In this document: one piece after another, positions 20,526 through 61,772 of the stretch | Layout of the letters: each line of letters starts with the position of its first letter | Position numbering within the stretch: position 1 is the first letter of the stretch | Source of the DNA: Lepraria neglecta | Taxonomy: Eukaryota > Ascomycota > Lecanoromycetes > Lecanorales > Stereocaulaceae | NCBI GenBank assembly: GCA_033220425.1 | Contig: CM065653.1 | Location: 1 to 64,000, forward strand | Length of the DNA stretch: 64,000 bases | Direction: 5' to 3' | Notes under the pieces: generated by a model | What the model saw: the letters and a program-made list of their open reading frames with translations, nothing else | What the model was told of the DNA's origin: nothing | Database searches by the model: none | Made by a program: the position numbers and the translations under genes

Positions 20526-23422
20526 TTAGCTCCCCCTCCTAGATTTCTCGTCCTGAGAAACTATCTATTCTTTATATTACCCTATTATACTAAATATTTA
20601 AAAGAGTAAGCTATCCGCCGAAAGGAACTGGCTAGTAAGCTATCCGAGTTTATAATATAGCTATACTCCCGATATATCGCTAGCGGTAAGTAGTACTAGG
20701 TAGGTACTAAATCCGATTAATATTCTAACTATATAGACGATAGTAGGAATTATAACCTTATAGTATCGGTCCTTGAGATATATTATATTAAAAAGCGGCG
20801 CAACGAAGTATAGTAAGAGCTATCTAATACTCTAGCTAAAGTAAGTCGTTTATAAAAATAGTTTAAATTAATTAAGAAGGAGAAGAAGAAGATAGTAGAC
20901 CGAGAGCTATAGAATATTAGGGAGCTAGAGGAAGACTAGAAGTCCGCCCTAGCCGTCCCCGATAATCTAATATTCAATATCTCGTCCGAATAATTCGACT
21001 ACCCGGATAGGTTCAATTGGTCCTCCTTCTAGGCCGTTCCCGAAACTCTTCTAGAAGTTCCTAGCAGTTCCGAAGGTTCTTAAGGGGTTCCTAGGTATTT
21101 TCGGTATCGTCGTACCCTTTCTATTTAACTAGATATTTCTAATCTACCTTATATAGAATCCTTTTAACCTCGAACTCCGTTTCTTCTTTAATATTATAAT
21201 AAAATATTTTCTATAAGGGTATACTAGAGTCTACTAGCTCAATCCTAGTAATATTGCCGGATTAATCTATCTTGAGTACTCCTCGAGCTAATCGATTATT
21301 AGATTATACTTCTTTAACTAAGGTATTCCTAAAATTATATAAAAAGTAGCTATCCTAATAATATTAAAGGTAATCTCCTTATAGTAGCGCTGAATTATAA
21401 TAGGTAACGAAAGTATCTCTTCGTCTACCTTTCCTATTAATAGTATTAACCCGTTAGCTATCTAAAGATTATACTATTATAATTTCTTTCGGGTTAGTAA
21501 TCTAGTTAATTATACTAAGTCTCGCGAAATAAAGTTTCTAGTAGCTCTAGAATCTATTATCGCAATAGTCCGCTGTCTGTTAATAATTACCGATATTTTT
21601 ATATATATATCGTATTATACGGAACATAGATATTATTTAGGGGTTAATATATTAATCTCCTTATAGCTACCCCTACTATAAGGGATTACTCTTTTCCCGC
21701 TTATAGGAGTAGGAACTTAGCTTCTAACTTTAATTATATATATTTCTTATAGTTATTATATAAGTAAGTATACTATCCTAGCTAGTTATAGTTCTTAGAG
21801 TATAGGTCGTAGTTTAAATCTTTTCTAAGCTTTTCTAACTATTTCTTACTACGTCCTAAGAAGAACTAGTAAATCCTTTTCGTTATAAGGTACTATAGGT
21901 ATTTATCTTCTTAGTAGTAGTTATAAAAGTTATACCCGTAGGGCGGTACCCTTATTAGTCCCCTAGCTATATTCCTTAGTATACTATACTATACCTAATA
22001 AAGTGATATATATTCTTTCTATAGTATACTTTTATAACTATAGTAGTTCCGATCTATCTAATAGTCCTTTAAGGTTTCTTTTTCTTTTAGTTCCTTAGAG
22101 TTTTCTCTCTCCTTTTCCTTAGACGTAGTAGTTTTAGGTATTACTTTCCCTAGTAGCTATACTTCTTCCTACTTAGCTTCTAATATACTAAGGGCTTCTT
22201 CCTACTCTAGGTCCGTATTACTTTCTCCCTAATCCTACTTAGACTTTTCTTCTTAAGCCTTACTACTATCTTTAGTATTTAGGTCGTTCCTATATTATTC
22301 CCTAATATATATATTAAACTTCCTTATAAAGTTATTATCGCTATTTTTAGATTCTTTATTAAGTTCCTCTTATATTATCCTATTATACTAGGAACTAATA
22401 TCTTCTTCAACTTTATCCTATACTAGTAGAATATCCTTAGGTATACCGTCTATATTATCCTAGGTATATACTTTCTCTAGTATATTTAGCTATAGTTAAT
22501 ATACTATATTTTTCAACTTATAGTCTCTAGTAAAGTAGCCCGATTTACTATAGCTATAATACTTTAGTATTTTCTTATTACCCCCTTACTACTTCTTACC
22601 CCTAGCTAGCCCTCTAATAGCCTATTTACCTTTCCTCTCTGTAAAGTCTAATTCTATTATTATATATCTATAAGGGTTATATTCCTTATATCCTAGGTAA
22701 TAACTCTTCGATTTAGTAAAAAAGCTTAAGTATCCTATTCTACCGACTCCTCTATTATACCTTTTCTCTATAGTCCTTTTAAATAGCTTATTATTAATTT
22801 TAATTACTTCTTTAATTAGTTTATTAAGGGTATTAATAATAATCCCTAATCTTATAAGCTTATTTTTAATATTATCCTTAAGACCTCTCCGGTATATAGT
22901 TATTAATATATTATTATCCTAGTTAGTCTTTACTATATATTACTGAAATTAAGTCGAGTACTCTAATATAGATTTCTTCTAGGTTATATACTAGATAGTT
23001 TATATTACTATATTAACTTCGTTTAATAGACCGAATATATAGTAGATTTCGAGTCTAAATATAGCTATACTCTCTATCTACTATTTAATTTCGCCGTCCT
23101 TATCGTTATCTTCTATATACTTCTTTAGGAATAGATTAACCTATTTTTAGGCTCTTCTATATAAGTAAGTAATAGTAAAGGTAGGATATTATTATATAGG
23201 TATAAGGTCTCCTTAGAACTTTAAGTAAAGTAATATCTAGGATAGCTATCCCTCGAGCTTATCTCTCTCTCTATAGTATAAGTCGGGCTAGGCTATCTTA
23301 ATATATCTACTAAGTCCTTTATTAATAGTTAGGCGTTATTATCCGCTTCCTCCTCCTAAGGAGCTTAGGGTAGGTACCCTAGGGTCTCTTAGTATAGTAC
23401 TTATCCTTAAGGGTACTTAAAG

Positions 23423-23895
23423 TATTATAAACTACGTTACGTATAGTAGTTATAGTATATATTAATTCTTACTAGGATAGGAGTATAATAGAGTAAGAGT
23501 ATAAAGTAGGCTTTAGGTAATACTAAGCGGGTCTAGTATATAATTAGATAATATATATTTAGTGCCTAGCCTAAGAGATCTATTATATATAGTAGATACT
23601 AGATAAAAATAGAAGTAAGTTAAGTATAATACTCTAAATAGTAAGTAGTACTCCGTATATATAGATATACGAAAGTTCGCTAAGCCCTCCTTAAGCGTAC
23701 TAATTATATAGCGCTTATTATACCTATAATCCTTAAGCGTATTAAGCGTACTACGCTTATAATACTTATCGCTTAGTATACTAAGCCTTAGGGTCTTATC
23801 CGAGTTATATACTAATTTATCCAACTTAGTACCAAGCCTATTCGATAATATTCGGTAACTATATATTCAAGATAGTACGGTTATAGCTTATAATA
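23423..23895 (-). repeat. Gypsy LTR (473 bp), mirror of 5,442-5,914
   Basis: Exact-length mirror of the left-arm LTR. It contains the same chance 103-codon frame (23,513-23,824). Confidence 0.78.
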
Positions 23896-25724
23896 GTATT
23901 ATAGATATAATATACCTAGCGGCTAGTTCTATATCCTAGCGATAGGTTTTCTTAGTAAGCCTTTCGGGTAGGTTTATATATTAGATAGTACTTATCTATA
24001 TACTAACTTCGATATACTTGCCTATAGTTTATATAGAAGCTATTATTCTAATATCCTTTATTAACTTTAATTTTATTCTATAACTTTTCTAGCTTTAGTT
24101 TCTTTAAGTTTTCCTTATCCTCCTTAGATATAGTAGATCTAGGTTTAGGTATTATTAATAGTCCTTTTATTATTATAAGGTCTTCCTATTCTAATTCTTC
24201 CTTATTCTAATCCTATTTAGTCTATTTTCCCTAAATATTACTACTACCCCTAATATATAGTAATCCTATCCGAGTATTAGCTTTATTTATAAAGCTGTCG
24301 TTAGAGAACTCCTCGTCCCCTAAGTCTAATCCTTTATTAGGTATTAGACTATAGACTTCGTTCTATATTAGTAAGTATATACTAGAATTACCGTTCTAGT
24401 CCTATACTTTCTCTAGTATATTTAGCTACTATTAATATACTATATTTTTCGACTTGTAGTCTCTAGTAAAGTAGCCCGGTTTACTATAGCTATAATACGT
24501 TAGTATTTTCTTGCCCCTATACTACTTCTTACTCTAGATAGGCCCTCTAAAGGCCTATTTACCCTTCTTTTCTATAAAGTCTAGTTCTATTAGCCTAGGT
24601 CCGTAGGGGTTATATTCTTTATATCCTAGGCGATAGCTCTTCGATTTAGTAAAAAAGCTTAAGTATCCTATCCTACTAACTCCTCCGTTATACCTTTTCT
24701 CTATAGTTCTTTTAAATAACTTATTATTAATTTTAATTACTTCTTTAATAAGCTTATTAAGAGTATTAAGGATAATCCTCGCTCTTATAAGTTTATATTT
24801 AATATTATCTTTTAAACCTCTTTAGTATATAGTTATTAATATATTATTATCCTAGTTAGTCTTTACTATATATTACTAAAACTAAGTAGAGTATTCTAAT
24901 ATAGACTTCTTCTAAGTTAAGTACTAGATAGTTTATATTATTATATTAACTTTATTAGATAGTCTAAATATATAGCAGATTTTAAGTCTAAATATAGCTA
25001 TACTTTCTATCTATTATTTAATCTTACTATCCTTATTATTATCTTCTATATACTTCTTTAGGAATAGATTAATCTACTTTTAGGCTCTTCTATATAAGTA
25101 AGTAATAGTAAAGGTTAGATATTATTAGATAGGTATAAGGTCTCCTTGAAACTTTAGATAAAGTAATACCTAGGATAGCTATCTCTTAAGCTTATCTCTC
25201 TTCTATAGTATAAGTCAGGCTAGGCTATCTTAATATATCTACTAAGTCCTTTATTAATCGTTAGATATCTCTATCTACTTCCTCCTCCTAAGGAGCTTAG
25301 GGTAGGTACTCTAGGGTCTCTTAGTATAGTATTTATCCTTAAGGGTACTTAAAGTATTATAAACTATATATACTAGTATTATATAGATATAATCTTAATA
25401 GGGATAGAGGTACTAGCTATATATAAGAGAGTAAAGCAGGCTTTGTATAGTTTACTAGGCTAGTCTAGTATAGAATATAATATAATATATTTAGTACCTA
25501 GGAGATCTATTATATAAAGCTAAGTATAAATAATAATAGAGTTAAGTACGGTACTCTAAGTTATAAGTAGTACTCCGTATATATAGATATATAAAATCCC
25601 CGCCAAGCCTTCTTAAGCGTACTAGTTATACTATACTTATAGTACTTATCGCTTAGTATACTAAGCCCGTTTAATAACGTTCGATAACTATATATTTAAT
25701 ATAGTATAGTTATAGCTTATAATA
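23896..25724 (-). mobile_element. Partial Ty3/Gypsy unit, mirror of 3,613-5,441
   Basis: Gag-like sequence followed by an LTR (25,355-25,724) on the minus strand, matching the left arm. Dead fossil. Confidence 0.75.
25355..25724 (-). repeat. Gypsy LTR (370 bp), mirror of 3,613-3,982
   Basis: The terminal sequences TATTATAAGC...GTTTATAATA are read on the minus strand (from 25,724 down to about 25,355). Confidence 0.75.
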
Positions 25725-25885
25725 TACTCTAAGGCAGTAGAGGTAGCTCTAAGGTAGTCTAAGTAGCCAAGCTTTAGCGCCAAGCGCCTAGAAGCTTAAC
25801 CCTGAAAGCTGTGATATTCTATAACCGGCGGTAGCGCTTAGGAGCCTTACCCTCTAGCAGCGCTATATCGTAGCCCTAATATCTA

Positions 25886-25972
25886 TCGTAACTTCCAAAA
25901 ACCTATTATAGCGCCGATTACATCGGTAAATAGCGCGCGTACATACTAAAAATCCGATAATATCGGCTTTTT
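25886..25972. repeat. Left 87-bp TIR
   Basis: It begins TCGTAACTTCCAAAAACC and ends in CGGCTTTTT. It is inverted relative to 30,964-31,050. Confidence 0.88.
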
Positions 25973-26149
25973 ATAGATCTTAACCGGTAGTAGTTAGAAT
26001 ATATCCTAATCGGGCAGAATTGAAGCTCTTCGTATAGTATTACTTTTGCCCCTATAAGCTGAGATATTACCCTTACTATTACTATTACCTACCCTTACCG
26101 CCGCTAAAATACTACCCCTACTAAGCTCCTAGATACGTTTCGATATCGA

Positions 26150-27270
26150 GTACTATCTCGGCCGCGGTAATATAGTCAAGGATATAGTAAGCTGTACTAG
26201 TATAACTTAGTAGTAGATCTCTAAGATAAAGCGGAACCTGGATAAGTAGAGGAGTATTATCGCCCTATATATAAAGTAAGGGTGACCTCGCCTTCTTACT
26301 AATACTATAGAGAAACCCCTAACTAATTAGCTGGATAAGAAGCTATTATCTTATTTATTCGAGATAGTATACTTTCTATTTAATATATACGATAGTCTAA
26401 CTATTAGCGAGCCGACTATTTACTATATACTTATATAGTACGGTTAGTTATATAAAAAAGTAAGCCTCTTATCTATATAGAAAATAGTCTAACTTACTTA
26501 ATAACGCCTAAATAGGCTTCTTACCGAGCTTCCTAGTAAGACTAATAACAGCGGGATAAGTAGAAGGTAAAGCTATATAGCTAGACTGTATATTAGCTAG
26601 TATTTCTAGATAAGACCGTATCCTATAAGCGTACCGCTGATAGAAAATTTAGCTAGTCTCGTCTTAGTATAGAGGTAGAGGTAAATATACTATTTAAAAG
26701 ATTAAAGAGGTAGTTAGTTCTTCCTATATATACGATAGATAGATATATTACCTAGACTACTATCTATAGTTCTCTTACCGAGAGTCTATTCAACGATTTT
26801 ATATATAATAAGGTCCTTCTATTATATACTCCTATATTACTAGAAGGTCCTTACTTAGTACTCGTCCTAGATAATATAGCTATCTACTACTTATAGGAAT
26901 TAGTAGATATATACGAGGCTATAGACGTTATATTAGCTTATCTTCTACTATACTTACTAGACTATAACCCTATTAAGATATTGTTTATAATTCTTAAAGG
27001 ATAGCTAAAGAGGAATAGTTACCTAATTAATACTTATAGTCCTAAGCTAGTAGACTTCGAGAGATTTTTAAATAATACGGTAAGGGCGTAGAGCAACCTT
27101 ACTAACTATAGGGTACTATTTCAAGTAGCGGGGATATATTATAAAGGGCGGTAAATTATATATAAATAGCAGGGAGAACTATAAGTAGAATATATATATA
27201 ATAGAGTTATAAAATAATAAGTTTTATTAGTAAATAGTATATAATTATCTTATTAGCGGCGATATAACTC
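26150..27270 (+). pseudogene. Transposase relic, DD34E (IS630-Tc1/mariner, DDE_3 type)
   Basis: The catalytic core can be read on the plus strand: an FLD block near 26,600, LVLDN with the second Asp at 26,870-26,872, and DYNPI followed by the third catalytic position at 26,975-26,977. Exactly 34 residues separate the second and third sites, the classic DD34E spacing. The third site now reads AAG (Lys) where the family has GAG (Glu), a G-to-A change of RIP type. Upstream helix-turn-helix-like sequence is too eroded to assign. Frequent TAG/TAA codons close the frame, so the gene is dead. It is a plain DNA transposon gene that would have moved the element around it. Confidence 0.82.
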
Positions 27271-27856
27271 CTAGTACCCTATCTCTCATTTAAACTACTA
27301 ACTCTTAATACTCTTTATAATATTATCCTTATTAGGGGGATACTAAGTCTATAGTATATCGTTATTATTATCCTTATCCTCTATATTTTTATTTTTATTT
27401 AGTATAGAGCGCTTAGATAGTAACTATTATAACTTATCCTAAGTTGTTACTTAGGAAGTAGATACCTAGATCTAAGTAGATAGCGGCGGTAAGGATATTA
27501 TACTAATTTATATAGCTCTTAGTATAGTTACTTAAGAAGAGGTATTAGTATAATTAAATAGCTATACATTCTCCGACTACTAAGCTAAAAAAACTCGGAC
27601 CCTAATATAATAAATCGCTTAGTTATAGGATTATCCGTGTATTTAATAACTAAATACTACTAAAATTAAAATTTTTAAAACTATAGCGCAGAAACTAATA
27701 TCTATAATATTTAGTATCGGAGAATACCGTATAACGCGTAGACTTACTTAATCTTTCTTCTAATAATAGATTATCGCGATATTCGGAGTAATTCTATACT
27801 TATAGCCAATTAGAATGGCCCTATACTTCTCCCCCCTAATAGTACGCTTTTCGGCC

Positions 27857-28650
27857 TAGCGCCTTTAACTACTAAAACTTGAATTCGTACCGTAACTTCT
27901 TCGCAGTACTTCCCTACGCTATATATATTATATAATATCGAGATAATTTTATAAGTTTTGGACTTAATCATTAGCTTGCTTGCGTATCAAGAATTTTTAG
28001 AATCAGCCTATTTACGTAATAGTTATAAGTAAAAGAAGCGTTTTCGCTATGTTTTACAGGCAGCGCAAGCTTAGTTAAATACGTACCGCAACTTCTTCGC
28101 AGCAATGCCCCGCGCTATATACGCTATATAATATCGAGAGGATTTCATAAGCTTTGGACTTAATCATTAGCTTGCTTGCACATCAAGAATTTTTAGAATC
28201 AGCCCATTTGCGCAATAGTTATCACTAAAAGATACGTTTTCGCTATATTTTGCTGGTAGTGCGAGCTTAGTGGCAAATGCCAAGCATTGAGCTTGGCGCC
28301 CCCGGACCCTAGAATATCAAAAGTTGAATACGCACCGCAACTTCTTCGCAGCAATACCCTGCGCTATATACGTCATATGATATCGAGATAATCTCATAGG
28401 TTCTAGAGCCAAGTATACGCTTTCTAATACCGTCAGAATTTTCAAAATCGGTCTATTTACGCAAAACTTATAAGTAAAAGAAGCGTTTTCGCCATATTTT
28501 ACGGGTAGCGTAAGCTCAGTAGCAAATACTAAGCATTAAGCTAGGCGCCCCCGGACCCTGGAATATCAAAAGTTAAATACGTACCGCAACTTCTTCGTAG
28601 CGATACCCCGCGCTATATATATTATATAATATCAAGATAATTTTATAAGT
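27857..28650. repeat. Tandem satellite of ~200-250-bp units, right copy
   Basis: Mirror of 690-1,480. Four units share GAAGAAGTTG-type, TATATAGCG-type and GGTCCGGGGGCGCC-type segments, and the array is richer in G+C than its flanks. No open frame. Confidence 0.85.
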
Positions 28651-29339
28651 TTTGGAACCAAGTATACACTTTCTAACTAAAGATTTAGCTAAGGAAAGCT
28701 TAAAAAATATATTTTTACCTGCGGAGTTCCCTAAAGCTACCCCCGCAGCCGCCCCCGAAGCACTAATATACTAAATCCTTAATAGCTTTTGTCCTATTAG
28801 AATTAGAGCTTAGCTTTATATATATAAAATATACTATAAATAGATAGCTTTCTACATCCGCTTAAATTTCCTAAATCGAGTATAAAATAAGCGAGATATA
28901 GCCATTTTTACGGTAATCTTCTGTGAAGATTACGGGCACTTACTTATACTATTACTAAAATCTTATATATAATAAAGAATAATCGATAGAAGGATAAGAA
29001 GATGACTTATACTAATGAATAGTATACTATCGCTCTTTAAAGGCCTTATATTTACTGGCGTTTCAAGCCAAATAGTATCCTATACTAGGCTTAATAGTTA
29101 TAGTCTCCTACTACTATATATACCCTAGTTCCTTCCTTTCCAGCTGGATAGACTGAATTATTACTATCCCTTCTTCTAAAATATATCTAGTATACTTAAA
29201 AGCCTCCTTCTTTATCCTAGTAAACTTGTTTTCTATATTATAATACTAGTAGATATAGCTAGACTAATTATCGGTAGATATAGGGCTACTAGGCCTTAGA
29301 GCGTCCGCGTCTAGAAGATATAATAAAGCTTGAGATCTA

Positions 29340-30900
29340 GAAGAGGAAGCTCTATAATAAGGTAGAGGTAATAGAGGAGAAGGTATATAAGTAGATACTA
29401 GCGGTAGCGCTGGCGTTAACTAAGGCGTTAATATAGCCGGGATATCGTCGCTAATAAGCTTCCTAATAAGCTTTAGTATTACTAAGCGAACAATCCTATC
29501 TATATATTTATCCTCTATAACATTAGTAGCTATACTAACTAGGGCAGGCGTTATTAGCGGTAGGATATCCTCTTACTTCTACTTACGATCCTTACTATAG
29601 GGAGCTAAATATCTTAGCCTCGCGGTAATATAAAAATTAGGAGGAGGCGAACTTAGTATAGTAGTCCCCCGGTTAATATATTAAACCTAAATACGAATAT
29701 AAGGTATATCGAGAGTATAATAGACGCTATCCTATAGTAAATACTAACCCCTAGTACTATTTAGATAGATATAGGAGGTATATTTATAAGCTCTTATTAA
29801 TTCAAGCTCCTCGTTATTAACTAAAGCTTACTATTAAGAATTAAGCAGGTCTACTTATATTACTTTAGCCTAAGCCTACTATACCTTAATATACGACTAT
29901 ATTAGAGGTATAACCGGTAATATAGATAGTAGAATAAGTCTATTAGTAGTATAAACGAACTAGAAATCGACCGAGATCTTAAAGCTCAGGGATGTCCTCT
30001 TTTGGGGCCGGCTCTTATATCTTAATTATATCTAACTTAAGACCTTTCTCTACTAAATAGAGTCTAGCTCGCCCTCTATTAAGTTAATAGTAATAGTAGC
30101 CTTCCTATCTATATTACTAACTCTTAGTTTAGCCTTTATTATAACCGTATAATAGCTCTTTCCCTTACTATCTATATACTCTAGACCCTTTATATAAAGC
30201 TTAGTATACTAGAGTTCCTAGTCTAGGCGTTCCTCGCCTTCTATAGTATATATAGTAGAGTCTCTAAAGAGCTCGATCTTTTTAAAATAGACTAACTACT
30301 CTACTAAATATCCTACTATTTTGAATTTATCCTATATAGTAGTAGCTCGCGCTACTATATATATCTTTTCCGCTTTAGTAAGTACCTTATTATAGTATCC
30401 TTTCTCCCTAGGCGATATCTATAAGGGGCCCAGTTTACTAGATATATTCTATAAGTCTATATTAATTATATAGCGATACTTCTTATAGAAGCTCTAGTGC
30501 TCTAGGCGGCGGGCTTCCTCCTAGGTAGTAGCTATAATATCTTCTTTATTATCCTTCTAGATCTAAGTATCCTATTAACTCTAATCTATAGTAGTAATAG
30601 TAGTAGCTAATTTAGATAAGGGTACCTTCTTCTGTTTTACTAGTAGGGGCTTCTTTACCTTAGATACTTGGCTTAGATACTTAAGGGAGGGCTTAGGGCG
30701 GGCTACTAGGGGTTTCGAAGTAGCGGAGGGGGCTGTAGACGACGAAGTAGGGAGCCTAGAGAGCCTATAGCGGCAAGTGTTTATAGGCGATGGAAGGTCG
30801 CTATATAGGGGTATAGTAGAGGGCGACAGCGAGGTTTAGGCGACGGGGGACGTAGTAATTAGGGCTAGGGCTCTAAATAGTAGCTATACTAAGCTATAGA
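29340..30900 (-). other. Coding-like but unrecognised stretch inside the TIR transposon
   Basis: On the minus strand, stretches between TAG/TAA codons look protein-like (charged and aliphatic residues, with a proline/serine-rich start near 30.7-30.85 kb), but I recognise no family. It may be a second gene of the transposon, captured host sequence, or an older element. RIP has removed every long open frame. Confidence 0.3.
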
Positions 30901-30963
30901 GTCATGATTTCCTTTTTAGGAAGCTTTATAATACTTAATATAGTAGAATAATAGATACCTTTC

Positions 30964-31050
30964 AAAAAGCCGATATTATTGGATTTTTAGTATATATACA
31001 AGCTATTTACTGATATAATCGGCGCTATAATAGGTTTTTAGAAGTTACGA
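30964..31050. repeat. Right 87-bp TIR
   Basis: It runs AAAAAGCCGATATT...GAAGTTACGA, followed by TA. It has the same length as the left TIR and carries more A and T (RIP). Confidence 0.88.
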
Positions 31051-31052
31051 TA

Positions 31053-31570
31053 CTTAGATTCGGGCGATTCAGCCAAAGTTCTCGCGGGGGGTGCGCGCTT
31101 ATACAGGTTCTATAGTATAAATCTATGCGTATTCGGTAGACTTGCGCATTTACGCTGATTACGCTGATTGCGCTAACGTTTATAGCGCTTATTAGGGGGC
31201 CTGCTAAGGCCTTAGCTTTATTGATATCTAGGCGCTAGACGCGCTACTTCTAGGCGCGTTATTTAGGGCGTTGCTAAGCGCGTTGCTAGACGCGTTCCTA
31301 GTGCCCGTAGCCCTAAAACTTCAATATTTTAACGCTGCGTAGTCGAATAACTCGCGTAATATGGCACCTACGGGGCCTTGATTCAGACTGATTTATCATA
31401 TAACCCTTACGCAGGTAGCCTCCAAATTTGGGGCCCAACGGAATCGATTTAGGGCTGCCTCTTACTGCCTTATAACTGCCTTAGAGTGCCTCGGTAGCCC
31501 CTAGAGGCGCTCCTAAGCTAGCTTTCTAGTATACCCCGCTTATAGCCTCGGAGGCTACTAAGGTACCCTC
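31053..31570. other. GC-rich patch with short repeats in the RIP block
   Basis: About 0.5 kb with far more G+C than its flanks. It contains short direct repeats: ACGCTGATT twice near 31,150 and a 12-bp unit of the type GCGTTGCTARRC three times near 31,270-31,300. Some TpG/CpA survives. It may be the 5' region of the adjoining recombinase element or unrelated single-copy DNA. No gene is seen. Confidence 0.5.
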
Positions 31571-34640: not shown

Positions 34641-35940
34641 TATAAGGTATATACCTAAAACCTTCTTACTTAAAATTATCCTTACTAATCTACTAAGCTT
34701 AAAGGACTAAGAGAGTTATTCTATTCTACCTTCCTAAGCCCCTTAAAAAATAGAAAGCCTAAGATATCTTAGCCTATAGGCGCCTTAGATAATTTAGACG
34801 TATATTAGTATTCTAAAGCCTAAGTATACTATTTTATCCTTCTTCTATATTTAAGTATAATAGGATATACTTGAAAGAAGTCGTCTAGCCTCCGTCTAAA
34901 TAGATTCCTAGTATATAGAGCCGGCTTCGGCGCAGCGTTCTACCCTATTATAGAAATATTTATAGTAATTAGTAATCTAGGTACTTTTATATCTACCTCT
35001 TATCGTTATAATTATTTTATTATTAGGTTCAAGTATAAGAATTAATTATAATTAGGCTCTAGGTAATCTAAATAGCTACTATTAGTAAGTATATTCTAAT
35101 AGAATATTTTAGCTGTTGTACCCTACCTTAAGTAGATATAGTAGATAAAGCTTCAGAATAGATTTAAGCCCGCCAGTATTAATATCTACGAGTAACCTTT
35201 ATATAGAAAACCTTCTACTCTTAAATCCTACTACAGCGCTACTTAGGTTTACTATAGCTTCTACTATCGTTTAATAGTAGTACTATACTTCTAATCTTTA
35301 TAGAGATACTATAGTCGGTAATATAATCCTAATAATATCCGTGCGAGGCCTAAGATTTTAGGTAGGTAGGGAGGAAAGTCGACGAGGCTATTAGTAAGTA
35401 GTATTTAGCCCTAGGAGGAATTATAGAAATAGTAATAAAGATAAGGCTAAATTACTAAGAAGGCTCTTACTGTAATTACGATCTATAAAGACTATTTCTA
35501 TAGGTATATAGAGTCGAGGGTTTCCGTCGAAGTCTCTAAGTAGCCTCGATTAGATATAAGTAGGCGTATAGCCTTCGAAAATATATTACTATTATTTCTA
35601 ATAATATAGTAGAGGATAAGCCTAATAAGCGATAAGCGGTATAGACGTTTAATAAGGTATAGATTAAGTAGATTAAACTACTCTCCTGCCGTTATTTAGA
35701 TATAGACCCGGCTAAACCCCGCCTAGTTATTCTAAATATAGAAAGTTATCCGCGCTTTACTAATATTTTGTTATACTTAATTAATATACTATCGCAGTAA
35801 TACTCTACTAGTTATTATATCTAACTATATTTAAAGATATATTAATCCGTACTTCTACCTCTAGAAGGTAATACTTAACTAATATAAACAGCTATAATAA
35901 CCTAGTTCCGACCTGCTGGCTACGACGTTTAAGACCTCTA
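34641..35940. other. RIP-eroded sequence, nothing firmly recognised
   Basis: 1.3 kb of AT-rich, CpA-depleted DNA between the MFS relic and the F-box gene. Short protein-like stretches appear on the minus strand around 35,150-35,650 but match no family I know. It may include the lost N-terminal half of the MFS gene. Confidence 0.4.
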
Positions 35941-36279
35941 ATACCTAAGATTACTACTATAGTCGGCTTTAATAATTTACCGAACGAGCTAATCCTTAAA
36001 ATTACTAATAATATCTAGCTACCTTACCTTATAGATTTCTATAGTATTAGTTATAATATCTTTATCTAGATAGAGATATATTAATAAAAATATTAACGCC
36101 TGAAACGCGAGTTTGCCTATCCTATTAGTACTAGCTATATTAGATCTACCGCGAAACTTCTTAAGGGTATTACTCTCGAGCCTAAGATAGCTCTCTATAT
36201 CCAAGAATAGAAATTAGACTATTATCGTTTTAAATAGGGTATCTAGGATAACTATAAACCCGAATACGTTAAATATTCC

Positions 36280-36458
36280 TATCGCTATAGTATAAGCGTT
36301 ATAATATATTAATAAGATCTATAAATATAAATAGCCTAAGGAGCTAGAATCTATAGAATAAGGCTCCTAATATATATAATAGAGTATTAAATAGTAGAAG
36401 ACGCTAGAATATTAATAAAGAAATAGTAATAAAGGAAAATAGCTAATAGTATATAATA
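36280..36458 (-). repeat. Copia LTR, left copy (179 bp)
   Basis: Same length as 39,549-39,727. It has about twenty more RIP-type transitions than the right copy. Confidence 0.88.
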
Positions 36459-39400
36459 TATACCCCTAGCTTGAGCGCTAATATGATTAGGCTATAAAAA
36501 TCATATAATAAGGGTTAAAATATCGGCTATATTAAGGAGTTTAATAAAGTTTTGGTGTTTTTAAATTGGTAAAGCTTTAGTAAGGCTATCTGCTAGTATA
36601 TCGGCCGTAGGAATCTATAAGGCTATAACCCATATAGATTATTAATGGCTACTATATAAGCTTATTAACGGTTCCTAGTTCTAGAAGAAAGGATATTATC
36701 CTTATTTATATCTACGGATATATCGTTGGAGCGGGGAGCGGGAGCTCCTATTAGTCGATATTCCTAGTTACTATCTCTATTACCTACTAGTAGTATTTCT
36801 AATAAGGATGCCGATAAGGATATAAATTCATTAGGATCGACTATTTCTAATAGCGGCGGTAATATATATAATTGGTATTTATTAGTTATTATCTTGGGAG
36901 GTAGGATTAGAGTAGTATTACTATTACTAGGAATAGGAATCTCTAGCTTCTGCTTATCTTAATTATCGGCTAGTAGAGCTTCAGGGATTTCTTATAAGAT
37001 TTATATAACTTGTAGTAGTTCTTGCTCTTCTTACTAGGAATCCAAATATAATAGATATTCCTGGAGCTATACCCTACTAGATACCTAATATAAGCTCGAG
37101 GCTCTAGCTTCTAGAGCTTTAGAATATTATAAATAAGAGGGTAAGCTCTATAGCTATAAATCTTTATATATAAGAGTATCGGCTTTAAGTAGTAAAGGGC
37201 TTCGAACGGTATTATTCCCGTCCTAGATATTAGGGTATAGTTAAGGATATATATCGCTGCTGATACTATTTCCGGCTATAGATTATATAGTAAGTTAGTA
37301 CTGATCCTTATACATCTGGCTTTCTGAATAATCACCCCCCTAGAGCGCTCGGATTTTCCGTTTTAGGCAGGGGTGTATAGAGTAGTACGCTCTAATTAGA
37401 TACTATACCTAGTAAGTAGGTCTCCGAAGGCTTGTCCTAAGGACTTCTTACTATTAGTACGAAGGAAAGTTATCCGCTATTAGTACTAATTTTCTATAAT
37501 ATTAACCATGCGGGCGACTATATTAGTAGCCTTATACTTATTATAATATGTCTATAACTAATAGAAGTAGGTATTCTAGCAGACAAAATGACTGATCTAA
37601 GTATATCTATTATAGCCTTACTCTATAGAAATAAGATTATACGATAAAGTAGACGTGTTAATAGGACTTTATTATCACTTCTTCTTGAAATAATACAATA
37701 TACTTTTAAGAGGCGACAGGTTTTATAGGGTTTAAACTCGTCTTAAGTATATAGCGAAGTAAGCTTTAGTCCTTTAGCTATAGTTAGTAGCTTAGAAATA
37801 GTATTAGCTCCTATATAGCCTATTATTTGGTATAGATGGTTTAGCGAAGCTTCGAAAGTTTTTTACTAAGATATAGCTTCTAAAGAGTTAGAGTTTGTAG
37901 CGGATAAAGCAAAGATTTATTTCGCCGATAGTAGGTTATTATATTTAATAATCCAATACCTATTATATAGTTTAAGCTGGTAGAAGTGATTCTATCTTCC
38001 TTTTTCGACTATATATAGAGTATCCTTTATAGTATCCCAATAAATGTTTATAGCCTTTGCCTTACTAAATAAGACTAAGTTAGTAAAGAATCCTAGGATC
38101 AGGGCCATTTATTTAAGTAAAATATTTTCTGTCCTATTAGTTGGTAACGCGATAGTAATATCGACCGTCCTATAGGTAGTAATAGGATATATTGTTAATC
38201 CGGAAACAAGATAGTCGTCGGATATAGTTGAGTGAGTTATTTTAAAGCGATAGGGATCGTTATAGATATAGATATTCGATCTAGAATCTAGTATCTAGGA
38301 GTTTATAATATTATAGTCGTTTATATTAAGGACTACTATAGGATCGCTATAATACCATTTTATTACAAAGGTTCTTGGATCCTATAGTTCAGTTAGAGGC
38401 TTAGTAGTTGTTTTCGATATCTACTTATTAGCTCTCTACTTCCTAGCCTTTTCGACGTTAGCTTTGACTTTTGAATCCTCCAGGGCTTCTTCTACTTTCT
38501 GGACAATCTTGGTATTTGGTTTCCAGCCATTGGGACGTAGTAATTCGATAAGGTAATAGCAATTACTATACTAATATACCATCCCACAAGCATATTCCTA
38601 GGGCGGTTCCTTTGATTTTTGAGGGTTTATAGATATAGATATCAGAGGTTGACCTTGCAGCGTTACCGTATATAAGGATACGGAGTTACTAGATAGTAGA
38701 TTATCTATACTAATTTGTCGAAAGAGATTAAGGACTTCCATAAAGGTAGGTATTTTCTTATTTCGGGAACGTCTGAGCTATAGGTTATAAAGTGATATTA
38801 CGGTCTAGGTAGGATTCGTCTACTTAAGGCTGTTAATAAAATAGTTAAGGATTAAACCTGTTTCAACATCCGAATACCTCGTTGCTTTGGCTTCTGCATA
38901 GACCGTTTCCTATCTACTAAGCTACTACTTGATATTCTAACCCTTTAGTAGTCCTATACAAAGTACTTTATACTAACGATCAATCTTAAGAGCTCGGATA
39001 CTTAAATAAGGTTCGATAGCATGTTAGAGGGATCGAAGAGCTTGCTATAGAGTGTCCTTATCAAGAATATACGTGACGTACTCAGGTAAGATTGATTTTT
39101 GTATATATAATAATATACGGATTAGTATATCCTTCTTCTCCCTATAATCCTTTTATCGAATATTAAACTCTAGTAACTAATTAGTATATTAATCGTTGCG
39201 CTCGATTTCTGTAAGGCCTAGTAGTAGCCCTATTTATCTTAGAAGAGTGGGAGTAGTAATTAGGGGCTCTTAATCGAGCGATAGGTCTATAAGATCCTAG
39301 ATATCTGATTATTTTGCACTGGATCTAATAATAGAGATCCAGTTATACTATATTAATATATCTGTAAGGGTGATCGATATAGAAACGGTAGCTTGTAAGC

Positions 39401-39548
39401 TTATATTAATGGCTTCTACCGCGATAAAGGAAATTAGATAAGTTTAAGGCTTATTGAAGATGTTAAAGAATCGGGTACAGCGGTTGGTATACTTGATCGG
39501 GTTTAGCGCCGTTTAAGCTAACTAATTAGGGCAATCCGGGCTTATAAC

Positions 39549-39727
39549 TGTCACTATGGTGTAAGCGTTGCAATATATTAATGAGATCTATGAATGTGAA
39601 CAGCCTAAGGAGCCAGAATCTATAGAATAAGGCTCCTAATATATATGATGGAGTGTTAAATAGTAGAAGACGCTAGAATGTTGACAAAGAAATGGTGATA
39701 AAGGAAAATGGCTAATAGTATACAATA
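39549..39727 (-). repeat. Copia LTR, right copy (179 bp), at the edge of the RIP block
   Basis: It keeps most of its TpG and CpA steps. Read on the minus strand it runs TATTGTATAC...GTGACA, close to the usual TGTTG...ACA ends. ATTCC follows on the plus strand. Confidence 0.88.
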
Positions 39728-40838
39728 ATTCCGAAGCTGATAAGAGGCTTTTCGAGATAGCAATCCGAGAGAGCCCGTATGTAGCCGAATGTGACAAGGA
39801 TGGATAGACGTACGCTGTGCGAGATGGAGACGAAATGCCGTTGATCGCCATTGCCCTGACACAATTGCCCAATCTCACGTCAGTCATACTTCAAGATTTC
39901 AACGGCGAGGAGCGACTCCCTGCTAATGGAGATCTATTTTTCACCATCAATCGGATGATTGCTCTACTCGTCCCGTTCTATAGCACTGGAACACCAGAGG
40001 CACTTCCCTCCTCACGGAATCAGCCAACATCTCCGCTCATGCCCACCCTGACTTATGTGTGGGTCGAGCCTGGCTTTAACCCTGAGAACCCTGAGGCGTT
40101 CATAGATGCAGGAGCCATCCAAGCTTTCGCCGCATTACCGTCAGTCAAAGTCATCAACGGCCACAGAATTGGAGGGGATGAAGAGGACGTGGAACTGGCC
40201 GAACCGCTGGAGAGCTCTCACGCCACTACCCCCAATCTCTCGGCATGCGATATATCACCCTAGCGAATGTTTCCTTTCTTGGAGGGCTTTGCGCATCTGG
40301 AATCGTTCACATACTAGCCTTCTCCACGAACAGAGTTGTCTCAAACTTACGAGCCGCTCTTCTATGTTCGGGCTCTTATGATTGGAGCAAAGAACATTCT
40401 CCGAAGGCTAACACTTCAATCCGCTTCTGACAACGCCAGCTACATCGGTAGCCTCCGACGATTCGAGGCTTTGGAGTATCTAGAATCAGACCTGATTTCG
40501 CTCGTTGGTGATTTATCGCAAACAAACAAAACCCTGGAGGCCAGTCTTCCACCGAATATCCAAGAGGTCATACTCTATGATGATAGCAGTGATTCTCATC
40601 TCTATGAAGATCAGCTGGACCCGTTAGCAGAAGAGAAGGAATCTTCCACCCTCATCTTAGTCGGTTCAAATTTGTAATTCCATTTGGACGCGTTGACGGC
40701 ACTGACATCACAGACTGGACGAACACTTTCAAAGAGGCCGTGATCTCATTGGAGTTCGAGGACTATGATTCGGTCCCCCTTCCAGTCTTCTCGAAGTCTC
40801 ATACAATCTCTCCTTACCACGTGGAACAACATCATTGA

Positions 40839-41335: not shown

Positions 41336-42450
41336 TTACAACTCAAACCAAGGTTCTTTCGCCCTCACAAACTCCTCCCACGTACTCGCCTTCCCCTCAA
41401 TCTGTTCTAATGTCCACTGCACTTCCCTTTCCCCTGTCGGTCCGTAGTACTCATAGTCCTTAATGAGTCCTAAACTGTCCTTCAGAATTCTCATCATCTC
41501 AGGCGGCAGTGAGACTTTGGTAGTTCCTCCTGGAATCTGCACAAATCTCACTTTCTTGCCCGTGACCTTCGTCCAGGTGTCAGCCATTTCTGGCCCAGTG
41601 TAGTAAGCAGTCGCCGCTGTGAAGATTTTGCCACTGTACTTCTTGGGATTGAGTAGGGCAGGCGCAAGATATTTGCCGGTGTCTTTGATATCGATGAGGG
41701 GAATCCGAGTGTCAGCATTCCAGGTTTGGGCAAATTCGAAATCGCCGTTGATGTTCTGAACAACGCCACGAATTAGTCCCTCACCCTATTGGGTGAATAG
41801 GTACTGACAGGCTTTGGCTTGAACAAGGTCAAGAAGTTCTGCATGAAGAAAGCCGGCATAAAGAAAGCACTTGTGATGGGCAAGCCACGGATATATGTTT
41901 CCACATCTGCCTTACTATCCCACTGTACAACGCCGGTCAAGGTACCATCCGTCATCTTGGTCACATTAGGAAGTGTGGACCAGATTAGCAAGGAAGCACC
42001 GGCAGCGACTGCAGCATCTGCCATGGCTTTGCCTTGAGCGATCTCTATGGCTGCGGAAGCTTTCTCCCAGACTATTGCGGTGAGCATCAGCACTTTTGCA
42101 GGGCAAAATGCCTAATCTCCGAACTCTTGGAGCTGAGACGTACAATTGGTAACGGCAAAGACGGCAAAAGAGCCTGCAACAGCAAGTTTGAGAGACGCTT
42201 CATCATCCATATCAGCCTAAGAAAGATCAATTACATGCAACTGCGGAGATGATTTTCATCAATGAATGAGATTTACCTTGACCATCTCCACGCCCCTTTC
42301 CTGGAACTCCACAGCAGCAGGCTTGGATGGATCCCGGGTAATACCACGGATCTTGTAAGCCCGTGAGAGCTCGGGATTGCTCAAAGTATAGTCAATCAGA
42401 TTACCGCCTTGCTGACCAGTGGCGCCGAAGACGGTCAAAAGTTTACGCAT
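41336..42450 (-). CDS. NmrA-like NAD(P)-binding protein (atypical SDR), one frame break
   Basis: It starts at 42,450 with an N-terminal Rossmann motif: LTVFGATGQQGG (GATGxxGG). Three exons: 42,450-42,277, 42,216-42,144 and 42,071-41,336, with introns of 60 bp (GTAAAT...TTAG) and 72 bp (GTACGT...ATAG). Exon 1 gives the nucleotide-binding fold, and the middle and end give the NmrA-type body (ASLLIWSTLPNV, FMPAFFMQNFL, PLIDIKDTGKY). The total is 983 nt, one short of a multiple of three. The frame breaks in a run of three C at about 41,785; either side reads well, so the intact protein would be about 327 aa. NmrA relatives sense redox state through NAD(P), and some act as oxidoreductases or transcriptional regulators. 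A recent pseudogene or a sequence error are both possible. Confidence 0.85.
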
Positions 42451-43395
42451 CGTTGCAGTTGTTCGGCCGACGTTAGTGGTTTTGGGTGAAACTGTTCCTA
42501 GATTGCAACAATTACACAAGACCGGGGTATTTGTCCAATTCAGAGGACGGGAATTCGTTGCTTATATATCAATGGATGAAATGTGATGGATTAATAATCA
42601 ATGCATGGAATGTGATGTGATGGATTAATAATGTCAAGAAGTCCGAACCCTGCAGATTCCGTCCTTTCGATATGAGCCATCTGGATCGGGAGTTCCTCTC
42701 AGTGCCGGAATAGTAGAGCCGTTATCACCATAGGACTATGGAAAGCTTTGATATCTGCTCAAGACCACGAAGTTGACAGAGTGCAATACCTTTAACTCAG
42801 CGAACGGTGCTACGCATTGGACTTCCGGATAAGGTAATCCTCGGATCAATATTGATCCGGAGCCGGGAGAAATTTCTGCAAAATGTCCATCCCACTTCCA
42901 CTCCCATTCCAAACCGTGAACATCGTGTGCGATCAATTCTGAGACTGTACACCCGATGGGATCGAGGTCAATTTGGGCTACATAGAGGTCCAGCAGTTCC
43001 TTTCGGAATGGTCTCAACACGCCACAACTCAGCGCTCTGGTCTCTGTTTGCAGCTGAGGCTGACTGTGCCTTCGCTTCGCAACTTGGTCTTATACTTGCA
43101 GTTCCTGTCAGATCTTATAGGCATGCTTCACAGCTCTGTTTCATCCCAACAGCCACTGACCACTAATCAATCCATCGCATTTGGGCAATGCTTACATGAA
43201 ATCTTTGGCGGGCGCCCCTAGCGCTGACTGGATATGCTTACCTGCTTACTGTAATTATGTATAAAGTCAATAATGTATAAACCAGCTTTCTATCCTCCAA
43301 GGCTTGACACATTCTTTCGTTAATCATAGCTCTTCATCGGCTCGCAGAGACCACTGCGAAATCCAACCTTTTTCTAATCAAAACACGTTAACCAA
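42451..43395. other. Intergenic; possible gene fragment on the minus strand
   Basis: Between the divergent NmrA-like and Ala/Gly-rich genes, so both promoters should lie here. Near 42,560-42,630 there is a short repeat of GGAATGTGATG/GATTAATAAT. A minus-strand frame at 42,736-43,020 (94 codons, acidic and Trp-containing) looks mildly protein-like but has no recognised family and no clear gene structure. Confidence 0.45.
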
Positions 43396-57460: not shown

Positions 57461-58665
57461 TTAGTCTAGGTCCTGAAAGTTCGCATTTGGCGGATCCCTA
57501 TCCGACATGTACTTGAACCTCTCCTGATTCTCCTGCTTCAGCAAATAGCCAGGAATATCCAGATTCTCATCCATGCGATCAAAAATGTCCTCCCCCTTCC
57601 TAAATTCCATCCTCTCAAATATGTCCTCCCCATTCCTGATCCTCTTTAAGCAACTTTCCTTATCCAGGATATATGGATGATTGTAAGCCTTGCGGCTAAA
57701 ACTGTTAATCTTACCAAACAGCTCCCGCATCGTCGACATGCATGAACTGCAATGCCATGCTGCTTTATGAATAGACGCATGTACGTTCCCCGAGCGCAGG
57801 TCCTCTGGCTTGATGGTGTCGCTAGGACCATTGTAGAAGGTTGCTTGAGGATGAGGCCATGGTGGTTGCCTGTGCAGCCATTGGAAGGAATAATAGTAGA
57901 AGTCGCTGTTGAGGGTGATGCGCGGTGGGGATGCGCAATTGCGCAATACTTTTAGGGTAGCCGGTCTAGGGACCTCGTCGACGTCACCAATGACTAGAAC
58001 ATCGCCTTGGCTTGGGGCTTGATCGCCTGTGAGAGAAGCAAGAGCTTGGTCCAAGAGTGCATTACGAGAAAATTGTTCGTGCGCCCAGGTATCTCCAGTG
58101 GGAATGTTGGCGCTAGTAAAATTGACGACTGCATGGATGATTTTCGAATGGAAAGTCTAAAAAGCGGCCCATTGGTCTTTGAAATGTAGAGGCTTAGGGG
58201 CTTCTTGAAATGTTTGGGGAGACTCAAGAACCACAAAATAATCAACCTCGTCATTAAGCCCATTGAAGCGGATGCCAGTCGAGTTCGGTGTTGATGAGGA
58301 AAAGATCATAGACCGGCGCCGGTCACGTGTTGAATATACCTCCCAACGGCGTCGGTGGCAAAACTCCTTGGCGGGTTGCAGTGGCAAAAAGCCATGATCT
58401 CCCTCCTCCTTCAAAGCGAGCTGAGGTCCTATATACGGGATTCCGTCTTCGTCATTATCCGATACGAGTCGCGTGAGAAGAACGACAGCGTGCAAAGAAG
58501 CGCGGCCGTTGCTATAGAGGCAAGAATGAGTGGTCTTATGATGAGGAACCGCATTGAACATATACGTACTGGCTTCTCGCCAAGCCATTCGCATCCTTGG
58601 CGATCTGGGCAAGGAATTTGACAAGGAATTTGACGATGTTCTTGTTCTTGGTTCTGGTTTTTCAT
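57461..58665 (-). pseudogene. GT17 glycosyltransferase paralog, intronless and decayed
   Basis: It is homologous along its length to the five-exon gene at 59,251-61,772, but without any of its four introns. From 58,665: a polar tail, then a signal-anchor helix (FLIIRPLILASIATAALL), the stem, the conserved GDHGFLPL block, CHRRRWE-YSTRD, NDEVDYFVVLESPQTF, then the GDVDEVPR metal-binding DxD box (~57,985), FYYYSFQWLHR, WHCSSC and YMSDRDPPNANFQDLD. The frame changes near 58,440 and again around 58,300. An in-frame TAG lies near 58,157 where the paralog has Lys. A segment near the end (GEDIFERM/GEDIFDRM) is duplicated. GT17 enzymes (GnT-III-like, Pfam Glyco_transf_17) add GlcNAc to glycans in the Golgi lumen; the fungal role is not established. 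Confidence 0.83.
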
Positions 58666-59250
58666 CTGGTGTTTTCAGGGGTCATTCTATTCTTGGAACG
58701 CGTTTCACCTGTCTCGTCATCGCCAAAATAAAATTCAACGAGGACCAGCGCGCACTTTTATAACTCCATAACGAATGGCTTGATCGTAAAATTTCTGGTG
58801 AGGAAATTATGCAATCTGACTAAGGGAATAGCTTGCAGCCAAAAACTTGAGCTCAGCTTGAATCGTTGTGAAGTTACCAATTTTCGAAGTTCGCCCTCAT
58901 TGCATTTTATTTGGGCCTGTCAGATTGTCTTGGCAAAACGCGTGTTCCACCAACAAAGACGCGGGCTATTCTAACATGTTCAAGTTTTGTTCACGATCGT
59001 TAACAGTGAAGACTGATGGCTTGGGGCATGGTGATTCAACCTGCAGCATTCCCCAATCCGACACTAGCCCTCAGTGACCGTGACGCGAGTCGTTGGGAGG
59101 CGCCTCTGGATTTAGGAACGAGTCCCATTGCCAGACTTAGAGCATACTAGGCTCTTTGTAATCTTGGATGTATGTTCTAGAGACGTGTACAGTTTTCCCC
59201 GATGCAAAGCCAACACCATACATCTCGGACCATATCCCTCGCGACCCGCG
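58666..59250. other. Intergenic between the two GT17 copies
   Basis: About 0.6 kb, holding the 5' flank of the decayed copy and the 3' flank of the intact one. No repeat or gene recognised. Confidence 0.5.
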
Positions 59251-61772
59251 CTATCGGAGATCCCGAAAGTTTGCATTCTGCGGGTCACGATCCAGCATGT
59301 ATGAAAACTTCTGCCGGTTGTCCTCCCTTTGAAGATAAGCAGGTACGTCCGAGTTGTTGTCGATTCGATCATAAAGCTCCTTTGGTCTTTCGAACAAGTC
59401 TTCGCCTCTGCGGATCCTGTGTAGTAGTCTTGCGGTGTCAAGGAAGTATGGTTGGTTGTAACCTTTGTGGGAGAAGGATGTGATCTTGTTCTTGAGATCT
59501 CCCATGGTTCTGGAGGTTTAAAGTGTTAGTACCTTTTCTCAAGGTAGAAAAGCAACACCTGAGCTTGATGTAGAAACGCAAAGGCCGCAATTCACGCTTT
59601 CAAAGGAAAAACGTCTTCGTCATATTCAGCGCCATTCTCCGAAGTAGAAAATGTTGCATCTAGATCCCGAACATGCATCTTCAAACTGACCCCATGGGTC
59701 GGCGAGGGTGCAAAACTCAAGGGTCAGCTGAGCTCGCGGGTGACAAAAGAGTTCGGAATGGCACCGCCGCTCGGCACGCTCGAGACTCTTCTTTCCACTC
59801 AAATTCCATGTTTCCAGCTCTGTTTTAATCCAAGAAAGAGTATGTCCAACTCAGATTTGGATTCTCATTCCGGCTTCTCTGTCACCCGCGAGCCAAGGTA
59901 CCGCGCAAGAGGGTCACCGGTTCATGGGATGAACTCGTCTTAGATGCAGAACGGAGCCTCTCTACGCTTTCAGGATCTGTCTTCGGACTCACAAACCGGT
60001 TCTTGAAAGCGAAAAATGACCCTTCTTTGAGCCCACAGCCGTATTTTGACTCAAGTTGGGCCGCAGAAGTAGAAAAGAGAACCTGAAAGGTGTACATACC
60101 CGAAACAAGAACTGCAATGCCAACCAGTCATATATAGCTCGGCGTCAGCCTTATCCGTTCGTAGGCTCTCAGGTCTGACAGTGTTCTTTCCATTGAAATA
60201 TGTCGCTTGCGGGTGATGCCCTACGCACATTTCGGAGTCAGCATTCCTTCTTATGGGCAAAAGAAAGAGTGAAAGGACATGTTGAGGGAGCATAGCCAGA
60301 GTCACTGTTCCCACAATAGGACTCAGGACTCGGACAATAACATCGATTGGGAAGACAATGCTCCGAGAAGTACGTACATAGATCGCCTCGGTGAAGCCAC
60401 TGATAGCTATAATAATACATCTGGGTTCGAAGTGTCACACGTGGTGGAAAAGCACAATTACGAAGAGCGGTAAGGGTGCCTGTAAGCGTTCCAGAGTCAG
60501 CCCTTCCCCATCAGGTCTACGGCTGGGAAATAAGACAAGTCTTGGGAGCATCTGGAGGCAAAATGCCCACCAGTAGCTCACGAAACATGGTCTCACCACT
60601 CAGATTGCGATGCGAACCAGGGGTTGGATTTGCTCTGAGAGTATGCATACCGATACGGGGTATTTCGTCGATATCTCCAACAAGAAGCACATCACCCTGG
60701 TTGGGGGCTTGAGCTCCTGTCAAAGAGAGCATGACTTGATCAAAAAGGGCGTTTCTATGGGAGATTTTGGAATCAGCATTGGTCTGTGGAAACAAGAGTT
60801 GAGTGAAAATATAGTCATGGAGCGTTAACCAGGCTTGAGGAGTTGGTAGCAGCCTGTAGATGCCCATGTTCGCTACAAGACATGATGTATCTTAAGCGAG
60901 TTGAGTCAATACAGTCATCCTTGGCCGTCCCTTCTCGACGAAAATTGGCTGTTCAAAGCTCTTGACACAGCTTTTCGGGGACCATTCTGCTCGCGGATCA
61001 AACTTATGACTGCATATGAGCATAGTTTCAAGCGCCGAAGCTACCCTTCCATGCTATTGTGGAACACAGATATGGCCAAAACTTTGGTCTAAAACCTTTC
61101 ATGATATGAAAAGAAGGGCAGCAGGAGTAGGCAGTCGATAACACGAAGGCGTGATTCAAGACGTACGTACCGAGTAAAGCGTTCATGTTCCCAGGTATCG
61201 TCTTTTGGGATTCTCTTGGCGCCTGAATCGTCCAGAACGTGGTGGATAATCTTATGTTGAAAGTCTTTGAATTGAGACAAGTTATCCTTGAGGTGAAGGG
61301 GTTTTGGATTCATTTGAAAGGTAGTAGGGGATTCCAGAATGACGAAATAGTCGACTTCTTTGTCGAGCTCATTGAGACGAATTTCAAGGAAATCGAGCTC
61401 AGTGTTCATAAGAAATAGGTCATAGACCTTCCGACGCTGATCCCGAGTGGCGTAGGGCTCCCAGCGACGTCTTTGACAGTAATCCCGAGCCTCACGTAAT
61501 GGTAGGAAACCATGTGCTCCGTCTTCAATAAGGGCCTGATTCGGGCCAGCATAAGGTGGGCTTGGGTGCCATTCTTCGGATCGGAAAATTCGGGCGATTA
61601 GTAGCCATACAAGTAAACCGAATACTGTAAACGACGCAAGCCATTTTAGGCGTAGATAGGTCAAGGACATAGTCCTTGGGGCGTGGGAATCCTGGTGTTT
61701 GGGTAGGTCAAAAGGCTCCAACATGTGGGGATCAACGCTCGAAACGCGCTGTCGTGCGACCCTCGAGAACAT
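59251..61772 (-). CDS. GT17-family glycosyltransferase (GnT-III-like), five exons, intact
   Basis: Exons 61,772-61,171, 60,754-60,651, 60,479-60,378, 60,220-60,100 and 59,509-59,251. The sum is 1,188 nt (395 aa plus stop), and all four joins restore the frame and the homology to the neighbouring paralog. Introns are GT-AG, of 416, 171, 157 and 590 bp. Architecture is type II Golgi: cytosolic tail of ~43 residues, signal-anchor helix ~44-63, short stem, then the catalytic domain. That domain has GAHGFLPL, CQRRRWEPYATRD, LNELDKEVDYFVILES, the DxD box GDIDEIPR (Asp ~228 and ~230), YYYSYQWLHRG, GWHCSSC and SYMLDRDPQNANF. Pfam Glyco_transf_17 proteins transfer GlcNAc from UDP-GlcNAc to N-glycan mannose; the fungal acceptor is unknown. 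The first and last introns are long for a fungus. Confidence 0.9.

What the first reader, a model, noticed from the sequence alone, without database searches (positions are those of the whole stretch)
35941..40838. F-box gene split by a Copia element exactly in frame, with an ATTCC target duplication
The reading frame of the F-box protein runs from 35,941 through 113 whole codons to 36,279, then resumes at 39,733 in the same frame once one copy of ATTCC is counted. The left part is buried in the RIP block and would be missed by any gene finder; LPNELILKI marks its F-box. The RIP block therefore contains a former single-copy gene, not only repeats.
Basis: partly seen in the sequence, partly recalled or inferred. 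Interest (0 to 1): 0.75.

Follow-up and report, generated by a model that had tools for sequence, protein, structure and literature searches.

The report
F-box gene killed by Copia insertion
A jumping element landed inside what looks like an ordinary fungal gene, and a genome-defence process that mutates repeats then wrecked the half of the gene on one side only; this is a well-preserved example of a known kind of gene decay.

Summary
A 3,448-nt LTR element (36280-39727; two 179-nt LTRs) is flanked flush by ATTCC (36275-36279 and 39728-39732). Element plus one ATTCC is 3,453 nt, so the phase at 35941-36279 equals that at 39733 onward. The left half has 8 stops in 113 codons and matches no F-box in Pfam, NCBIfam or PDB. 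A codon model trained on nearby genes and mutated forward by RIP favours this codon phase, though not the strand. A forward-RIP F-box profile ranks 35977 first of 78,816 positions; 2 of 500 shuffled profiles do as well in phase near the junction, but 62 of 300 do as well somewhere in the block. The LTRs differ at 22 sites, 21 of them RIP-type on the left copy. So insertion most likely preceded RIP, which came from the left and spared the right LTR. The element is Copia-like, on the minus strand, apparently without reverse transcriptase. The right half is dead too: three TAG stops and a frameshift near 40.6 kb. No fungal genome was searchable: orthologues, copy number and synteny remain untested. 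An ordinary TE-disrupted, RIP-decayed pseudogene.

The parts
35941..36279 (+). RIP-ruined 5' part of the F-box-like gene; 113 codons, 8 stops, ATA at the expected start
   Evidence: codon phase score +5.4 against -29.9 and -36.9 bits for the other two + frames (r=0.9); 3 CpA+TpG left in 339 nt
35977..36069 (+). F-box core (LPNELILKI...)
   Evidence: forward-RIP F-box profile, rank 1 of 78,816 positions at r=0.9
36275..36279 (+). left ATTCC target-site duplication
36280..36458 (-). left LTR (3' LTR of the minus-strand element), RIP-saturated: 0 CpA, 0 TpG
36459..39548 (-). element interior, 3,090 nt, 68 to 132 stops in each of six frames
36576..36593 (-). ADSLTK, fits the ADxxTK end of RNase H given for Copia GalEa elements in PMC5445492
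   Evidence: position; motif
37027..37185 (-). retroviral polymerase SH3-like domain, PF25597
   Evidence: 27.3 bits, cut-off 27, E 3.5e-6; position
39536..39548 (-). putative primer-binding site just inside the 5' LTR (GTTATAAGCCCGG), resembling a complement of the initiator-Met tRNA anticodon arm
   Evidence: sequence; the tRNA resemblance is recalled, not tested
39549..39727 (-). right LTR (5' LTR of the minus-strand element), little or no RIP: 6 CpA, 16 TpG
39728..39732 (+). right ATTCC target-site duplication
39733..40838 (+). unRIPed 3' part of the gene; TAG at 39805, 40261, 40315; frame shift between 40,605 and 40,675; stop TGA 40836-40838 in frame +2

Best explanation
A fungal F-box protein gene of about 480 codons (35941-36279 plus 39733-40838) was broken by a Copia-type LTR retrotransposon that integrated antisense after about codon 113 and duplicated ATTCC. 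RIP, the fungal process that turns CpA into TpA in repeats, then worked from the repeat block on the left. It saturated the left gene half and the left LTR but spared the right LTR, so the right gene half kept normal base composition and decayed separately (three TAG stops, one frameshift). Shown: LTR pair, duplication, phase, one-sided RIP, stops and frame shift. Inferred: F-box identity, order of events (insertion first), RIP by leakage or spread from the left rather than because this gene was repeated, loss of reverse transcriptase from the element.
For: LTRs of 179 nt with 22 mismatches, 21 of which read CpA/TpG on the right and TpA on the left. Flush identical ATTCC on both sides. CpA+TpG: 3 in the left 339 nt, 0 in the left LTR, 22 in the right LTR, 47 in the first 339 nt of the right half. 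Codon-phase test +5.4 against -29.9/-36.9 at r=0.9, rising at about 35,821-35,941; the right part, damaged forward in the same way, is placed in its own frame (+3.6, next best -2.1). F-box profile rank 1 of 78,816 with a generic core (r 0.9, 0.98) and with the SKP2 sequence (r 0.8, 0.9, 0.98). In-phase local control: 2 of 500 shuffled profiles reach the true score. SH3_retrovirus domain on the minus strand. The block holds a long duplication ending 6.6 kb from the left half. RIP leakage into single-copy DNA next to repeats, with a graded decline, is described in PMC2973834 (passages).
Against: No F-box hit in Pfam at E up to 10, in NCBIfam or in PDB for the left half. Plain alignment of an F-box consensus is not special: score 39, tied with three other places and below 42 and 40 elsewhere. 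The profile rank depends on modelling strong RIP: 2nd at r 0.8, 66th at 0.5 and 1,880th without RIP for the generic core. Searching the whole block, 62 of 300 shuffled profiles find some site as good. The codon test fixes the phase but not the strand (codon-aligned antisense frame +8.3), and 3.1% of 71,124 windows of the block score as high. RIP index inside the element does not rise significantly from left to right (rho 0.23, p 0.42, 15 bins). No orthologue was available.
Confidence: 0.85

Rival explanations
1. The two flanks come from different loci, joined by recombination between two copies of the element; the left piece is another gene or no gene.
For: No orthologue could be checked; the left half has no database hit.
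Against: Identical flush 5-nt duplications on both sides (about 1 in 1,024 by chance) are what a single insertion leaves; codon phase and F-box profile agree with one gene.
Confidence: 0.07
2. The RIP contrast between the two ends is a recombination join: a crossover inside the element between a RIPed and an unRIPed chromosome, not fading of RIP along the DNA.
For: Left LTR is saturated and right LTR nearly untouched; no significant smooth gradient inside the element.
Against: No sharp break point is obvious in the 15 interior bins either (by eye); the ancestral element sequence is unknown, so neither is excluded.
Confidence: 0.2
3. RIP of the left half came before the insertion, the gene being already half dead.
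For: RIP can act on host DNA without the element.
Against: Before insertion the two halves touched, yet CpA+TpG is 3 against 47 in 339 nt on either side; the left LTR, which arrived with the insertion, is RIPed to saturation too.
Confidence: 0.08

Closest known systems
RIP leakage from repeats into neighbouring single-copy DNA (Leptosphaeria maculans AvrLm6/NC3 region, PMC2973834, passages seen; Neurospora report of at least 930 bp quoted there)
   Same: CpA-to-TpA damage in a former gene next to RIPed repeats
   Different: Here damage is near saturation over the left gene half and left LTR, and both halves of one gene plus an LTR pair serve as internal controls
Copia LTR retrotransposons of filamentous ascomycetes (PMC5445492, section 10 and passages seen)
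   Same: Short LTRs (179 nt; GalEa 138-311 apart from one outlier), 5-nt target duplication, ADxxTK-like end of RNase H
   Different: 3,448 nt against 5,428-7,018 nt for the GalEa elements described; LTR ends TA...CA on the sense strand rather than TGT...CA; little room for reverse transcriptase; neither the usual GalEa hairpin box nor the FunCo1 primer site stands directly after the LTR
F-box proteins (SCF ubiquitin ligase adaptors)
   Same: LPxEL-type motif near the N-terminus, long C-terminal part
   Different: Dead gene; no profile hit by ordinary search

Membership tests
Copia LTR retrotransposon | two direct LTRs with flush 5-nt target duplication | tested here: met
Copia LTR retrotransposon | integrase placed before reverse transcriptase; Copia-type integrase/SH3 region | tested here: inconclusive
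   PF25597 at 27.3 bits (cut-off 27), 5' of an ADxxTK motif on the minus strand; no integrase-core hit in any of the 9 minus-frame chunks. That the SH3 domain is Copia-typical is recalled
Copia LTR retrotransposon | reverse transcriptase (RVT_2) | tested here: not met
   no hit in the 9 minus-frame chunks with X at stops (plus frames not searched); only about 434 nt lie between the SH3 domain and ADxxTK. Read as a deleted, non-autonomous copy; RIP damage could also hide part of it
F-box protein | F-box domain above a curated cut-off | tested here: not met
   no Pfam hit in the X-masked left half
F-box protein | F-box pattern once RIP damage is modelled | tested here: met
   with the controls given there
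F-box protein | Skp1 binding | not testable with these tools
   none
RIP | loss of CpA/TpG with gain of TpA, one direction only | tested here: met
   21 of 22 LTR mismatches; 0 CpA+TpG in left LTR
RIP | duplicated sequence as trigger | tested here: inconclusive
   8.1-kb inverted repeat and further repeats in the block; no long second copy of the left gene half or of the element in the window; copies elsewhere in the genome could not be tested

The most novel reading that the evidence does not exclude
A 3.4-kb insertion marks a sharp edge of RIP, or of the heterochromatin behind it: the two halves of one former reading frame, now 3.4 kb apart, show saturated against no evident RIP, and the two LTRs record the contrast directly. 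The insertion may have shielded the right half and its neighbours from spreading RIP.
Probability: 0.25. Interest if true: 0.45.

Novelty: new member of a known kind. Interest (0 to 1): 0.25.

Why it matters
It is a clean internal control for how far RIP reaches from a repeat block: sequences identical at insertion (the LTRs) and one former gene, sampled on both sides of one event. It also suggests that RIP blocks can hide gene pieces that standard profile searches miss, and that a forward-damage model can find them without repairing anything.

Tried and rejected
Looked for the genome (none held). Sought relatives of the open right piece 39808-40260 in viral contigs and genome contigs (15 and 189 pattern matches, none confirmed by tblastn), in PDB (one hit, E 1.5, not meaningful) and NCBIfam (none). 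PDB hits of the left half to HemK (3 sequences, E about 0.09-0.1) were judged chance. DUF7161 in the right half (E 0.073, 13.5 bits against cut-off 27) was not accepted. Stop counts by frame gave no support to the F-box frame. Plain F-box alignment gave no support. A smooth RIP gradient inside the element was expected and not shown (rho 0.23, p 0.42). Rfam found nothing in the window at gathering scores. Papers: nine searches were seen as listings; only PMC2973834 (passages) and PMC5445492 (passages; section 10) were opened. The search for RIP, F-box, Copia and pseudogene gave 4 papers and that for a transposon insertion in an F-box gene gave 30, of which 10 were listed; no title or abstract opening shown there reports this case, but none of those papers was opened. 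The search for LTR_retriever and non-canonical ends gave 0 papers.

Full report
What was checked. The window is AT-rich and CpA-poor over most of its first 39.5 kb (base composition; dinucleotides from 30 kb on) and of normal composition beyond. At the edge lie two direct repeats, 36280-36458 and 39549-39727, 179 nt each. Immediately outside both stands ATTCC. The segment from the left LTR through the right ATTCC is 3,453 nt, divisible by 3, so the phase that starts at 35941 continues at 39733. The finding is correct on these points. That the frame is kept is no surprise in itself: it follows from any insertion with a target duplication.

Is the left part really the start of a gene? It has 8 stops in 113 codons; the other frames have 7, 18, 4, 14 and 21, so openness is no argument. 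Pfam, NCBIfam and PDB show no F-box in the X-masked translation. Plain scoring of an F-box consensus over all six frames of the window gives 39 at this site, below 42 and 40 elsewhere and tied with three other places. Because RIP changes residues as well as making stops, I modelled damage forward: eight open stop-to-stop pieces in the unRIPed half (1,299 codons; 7 of the 8 above a Pfam cut-off and one, the GH17 piece, under it; unrecognised introns may be included) were mutated in silico by RIP and used as a coding model. At r=0.9 the left part scores +5.4 in the proposed phase and -29.9 and -36.9 in the other plus frames; its codon-aligned antisense frame scores +8.3, so the test fixes phase, not strand. 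Of 71,124 windows of equal length in all frames of 1-35,900, 3.1% score as high (6.4% at r=0.8, 2.4% at 0.95). As a positive control the right part, damaged forward, scores highest in its own frame (+3.6; next -2.1). In 60-codon windows the phase scores -12.9 at 35,761, -1.5 at 35,821, +4.5 at 35,881, +1.5 at 35,941, then -1.1 and -0.6, while the other two frames stay at -14 to -20 from 35,941 on; the gene should begin at 35,941.

The same damage model applied to an F-box profile ranks the 31-residue core at 35977 first of 78,908 positions in the block. In a repeat with other settings it is 1st of 78,816 at r=0.9 and 0.98, 2nd at 0.8, 66th at 0.5 and 1,880th without RIP; with the SKP2 sequence 1st at 0.8, 0.9 and 0.98, 21st at 0.5 and 827th without RIP. 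The longer 48-residue profile ranks the site second of 78,857. Control: 62 of 300 shuffled profiles find some site in the block with an equally extreme score, though none of the 300 has its best site here; confined to in-phase plus-strand starts from 35,641 to 36,186, 2 of 500 shuffled profiles reach it. So the motif alone is weak, and the motif where a split gene predicts it is good evidence (about 0.004).

The right half. From 39733 the frame reads on with host-like composition, interrupted by TAG at 39805, 40261 and 40315; codon preference moves to frame +2 between 40,605 and 40,675 and the terminal TGA is 40836-40838. No family matches above a cut-off and no PDB chain is convincing. The gene is dead on both sides.

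The element. X-masked translations of the minus strand give one Pfam domain, SH3_retrovirus (27.3 bits, cut-off 27, E 3.5e-6), and an ADSLTK stretch fitting the ADxxTK end of RNase H described for Copia GalEa elements (PMC5445492, section 10; passages). About 434 nt separate them, too little for a reverse transcriptase by recalled domain sizes, and none was found in the 9 of 9 minus-frame chunks (plus frames not searched; RIP lowers sensitivity). Its 3,448 nt compares with 5,428-7,018 nt for fungal GalEa elements in that paper. LTR ends are TA...CA in the sense direction, against TGT...CA there. The 13 nt inside the 5' LTR (GTTATAAGCCCGG) look to me like a complement of the initiator-Met tRNA anticodon arm, as in half-tRNA priming; this is recalled and untested. 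A CTAATTAGT, one of the two usual sequences of the GalEa hairpin box, starts at nucleotide 20 inside the LTR end (39529-39521) rather than at it.

RIP and the order of events. LTRs are identical when an element inserts (established knowledge). Here 22 of 179 sites differ, and 21 of these are CpA or TpG on the right and TpA on the left; the last is A on the right and G on the left. The left LTR has no CpA or TpG left; the right has 22. The gene halves show the same contrast: 3 CpA+TpG in the left 339 nt, 47 in the first 339 nt of the right half. Before the insertion those halves touched, so most RIP must have come after it, from the left. If the element had been RIPed as a dispersed repeat in its own right, the right LTR should have suffered too. 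Whether RIP faded along the DNA or a crossover joined a RIPed and an unRIPed chromosome inside the element is open: the interior index rises only weakly (rho 0.23, p 0.42). A trigger is near: an 8.1-kb inverted repeat (1-8096 with 21241-29337, 99.5% identical) and other repeats; no long second copy of the left half or of the element lies in the window. Leakage into neighbouring single-copy DNA is described in PMC2973834 (passages).

Verdict. A correct and careful observation of an ordinary process: a gene broken by a retrotransposon and half erased by RIP. The claims of an uninterrupted orthologue and of a single-copy gene could not be tested. What raises it above routine is the double internal control on the reach of RIP.

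Noticed in passing
1-8096 and 21241-29337: 8.1-kb inverted repeat, 99.5% identical although both arms are AT-rich, running to the start of the window; either copied after RIP, homogenised, or an assembly artefact.
   Followed up: partly
30751-31500: Island inside the RIP block with G+C 0.39-0.50 and more CpA/TpG (index 0.47-0.79); 30597 and 31034 (+) give the two highest forward-RIP coding scores at r=0.9; one X-masked piece gave no Pfam hit.
   Followed up: partly
57461-58681 and 60051-61844: Two neighbouring minus-strand stretches of glycosyltransferase family 17 (Pfam hits at 57464-58156 and 61092-61844; outer limits from ORFs, not tested).
   Followed up: no
41336-42561: NmrA-like gene on the minus strand, spread over three ORFs (introns or frameshifts), the nearest Pfam-matching gene to the block among the pieces searched.
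   Followed up: no
39521-39529: CTAATTAGT on the minus strand, starting 20 nt inside the 5' LTR end, the same letters as the hairpin box of fungal GalEa elements, but not at the LTR end.
   Followed up: partly
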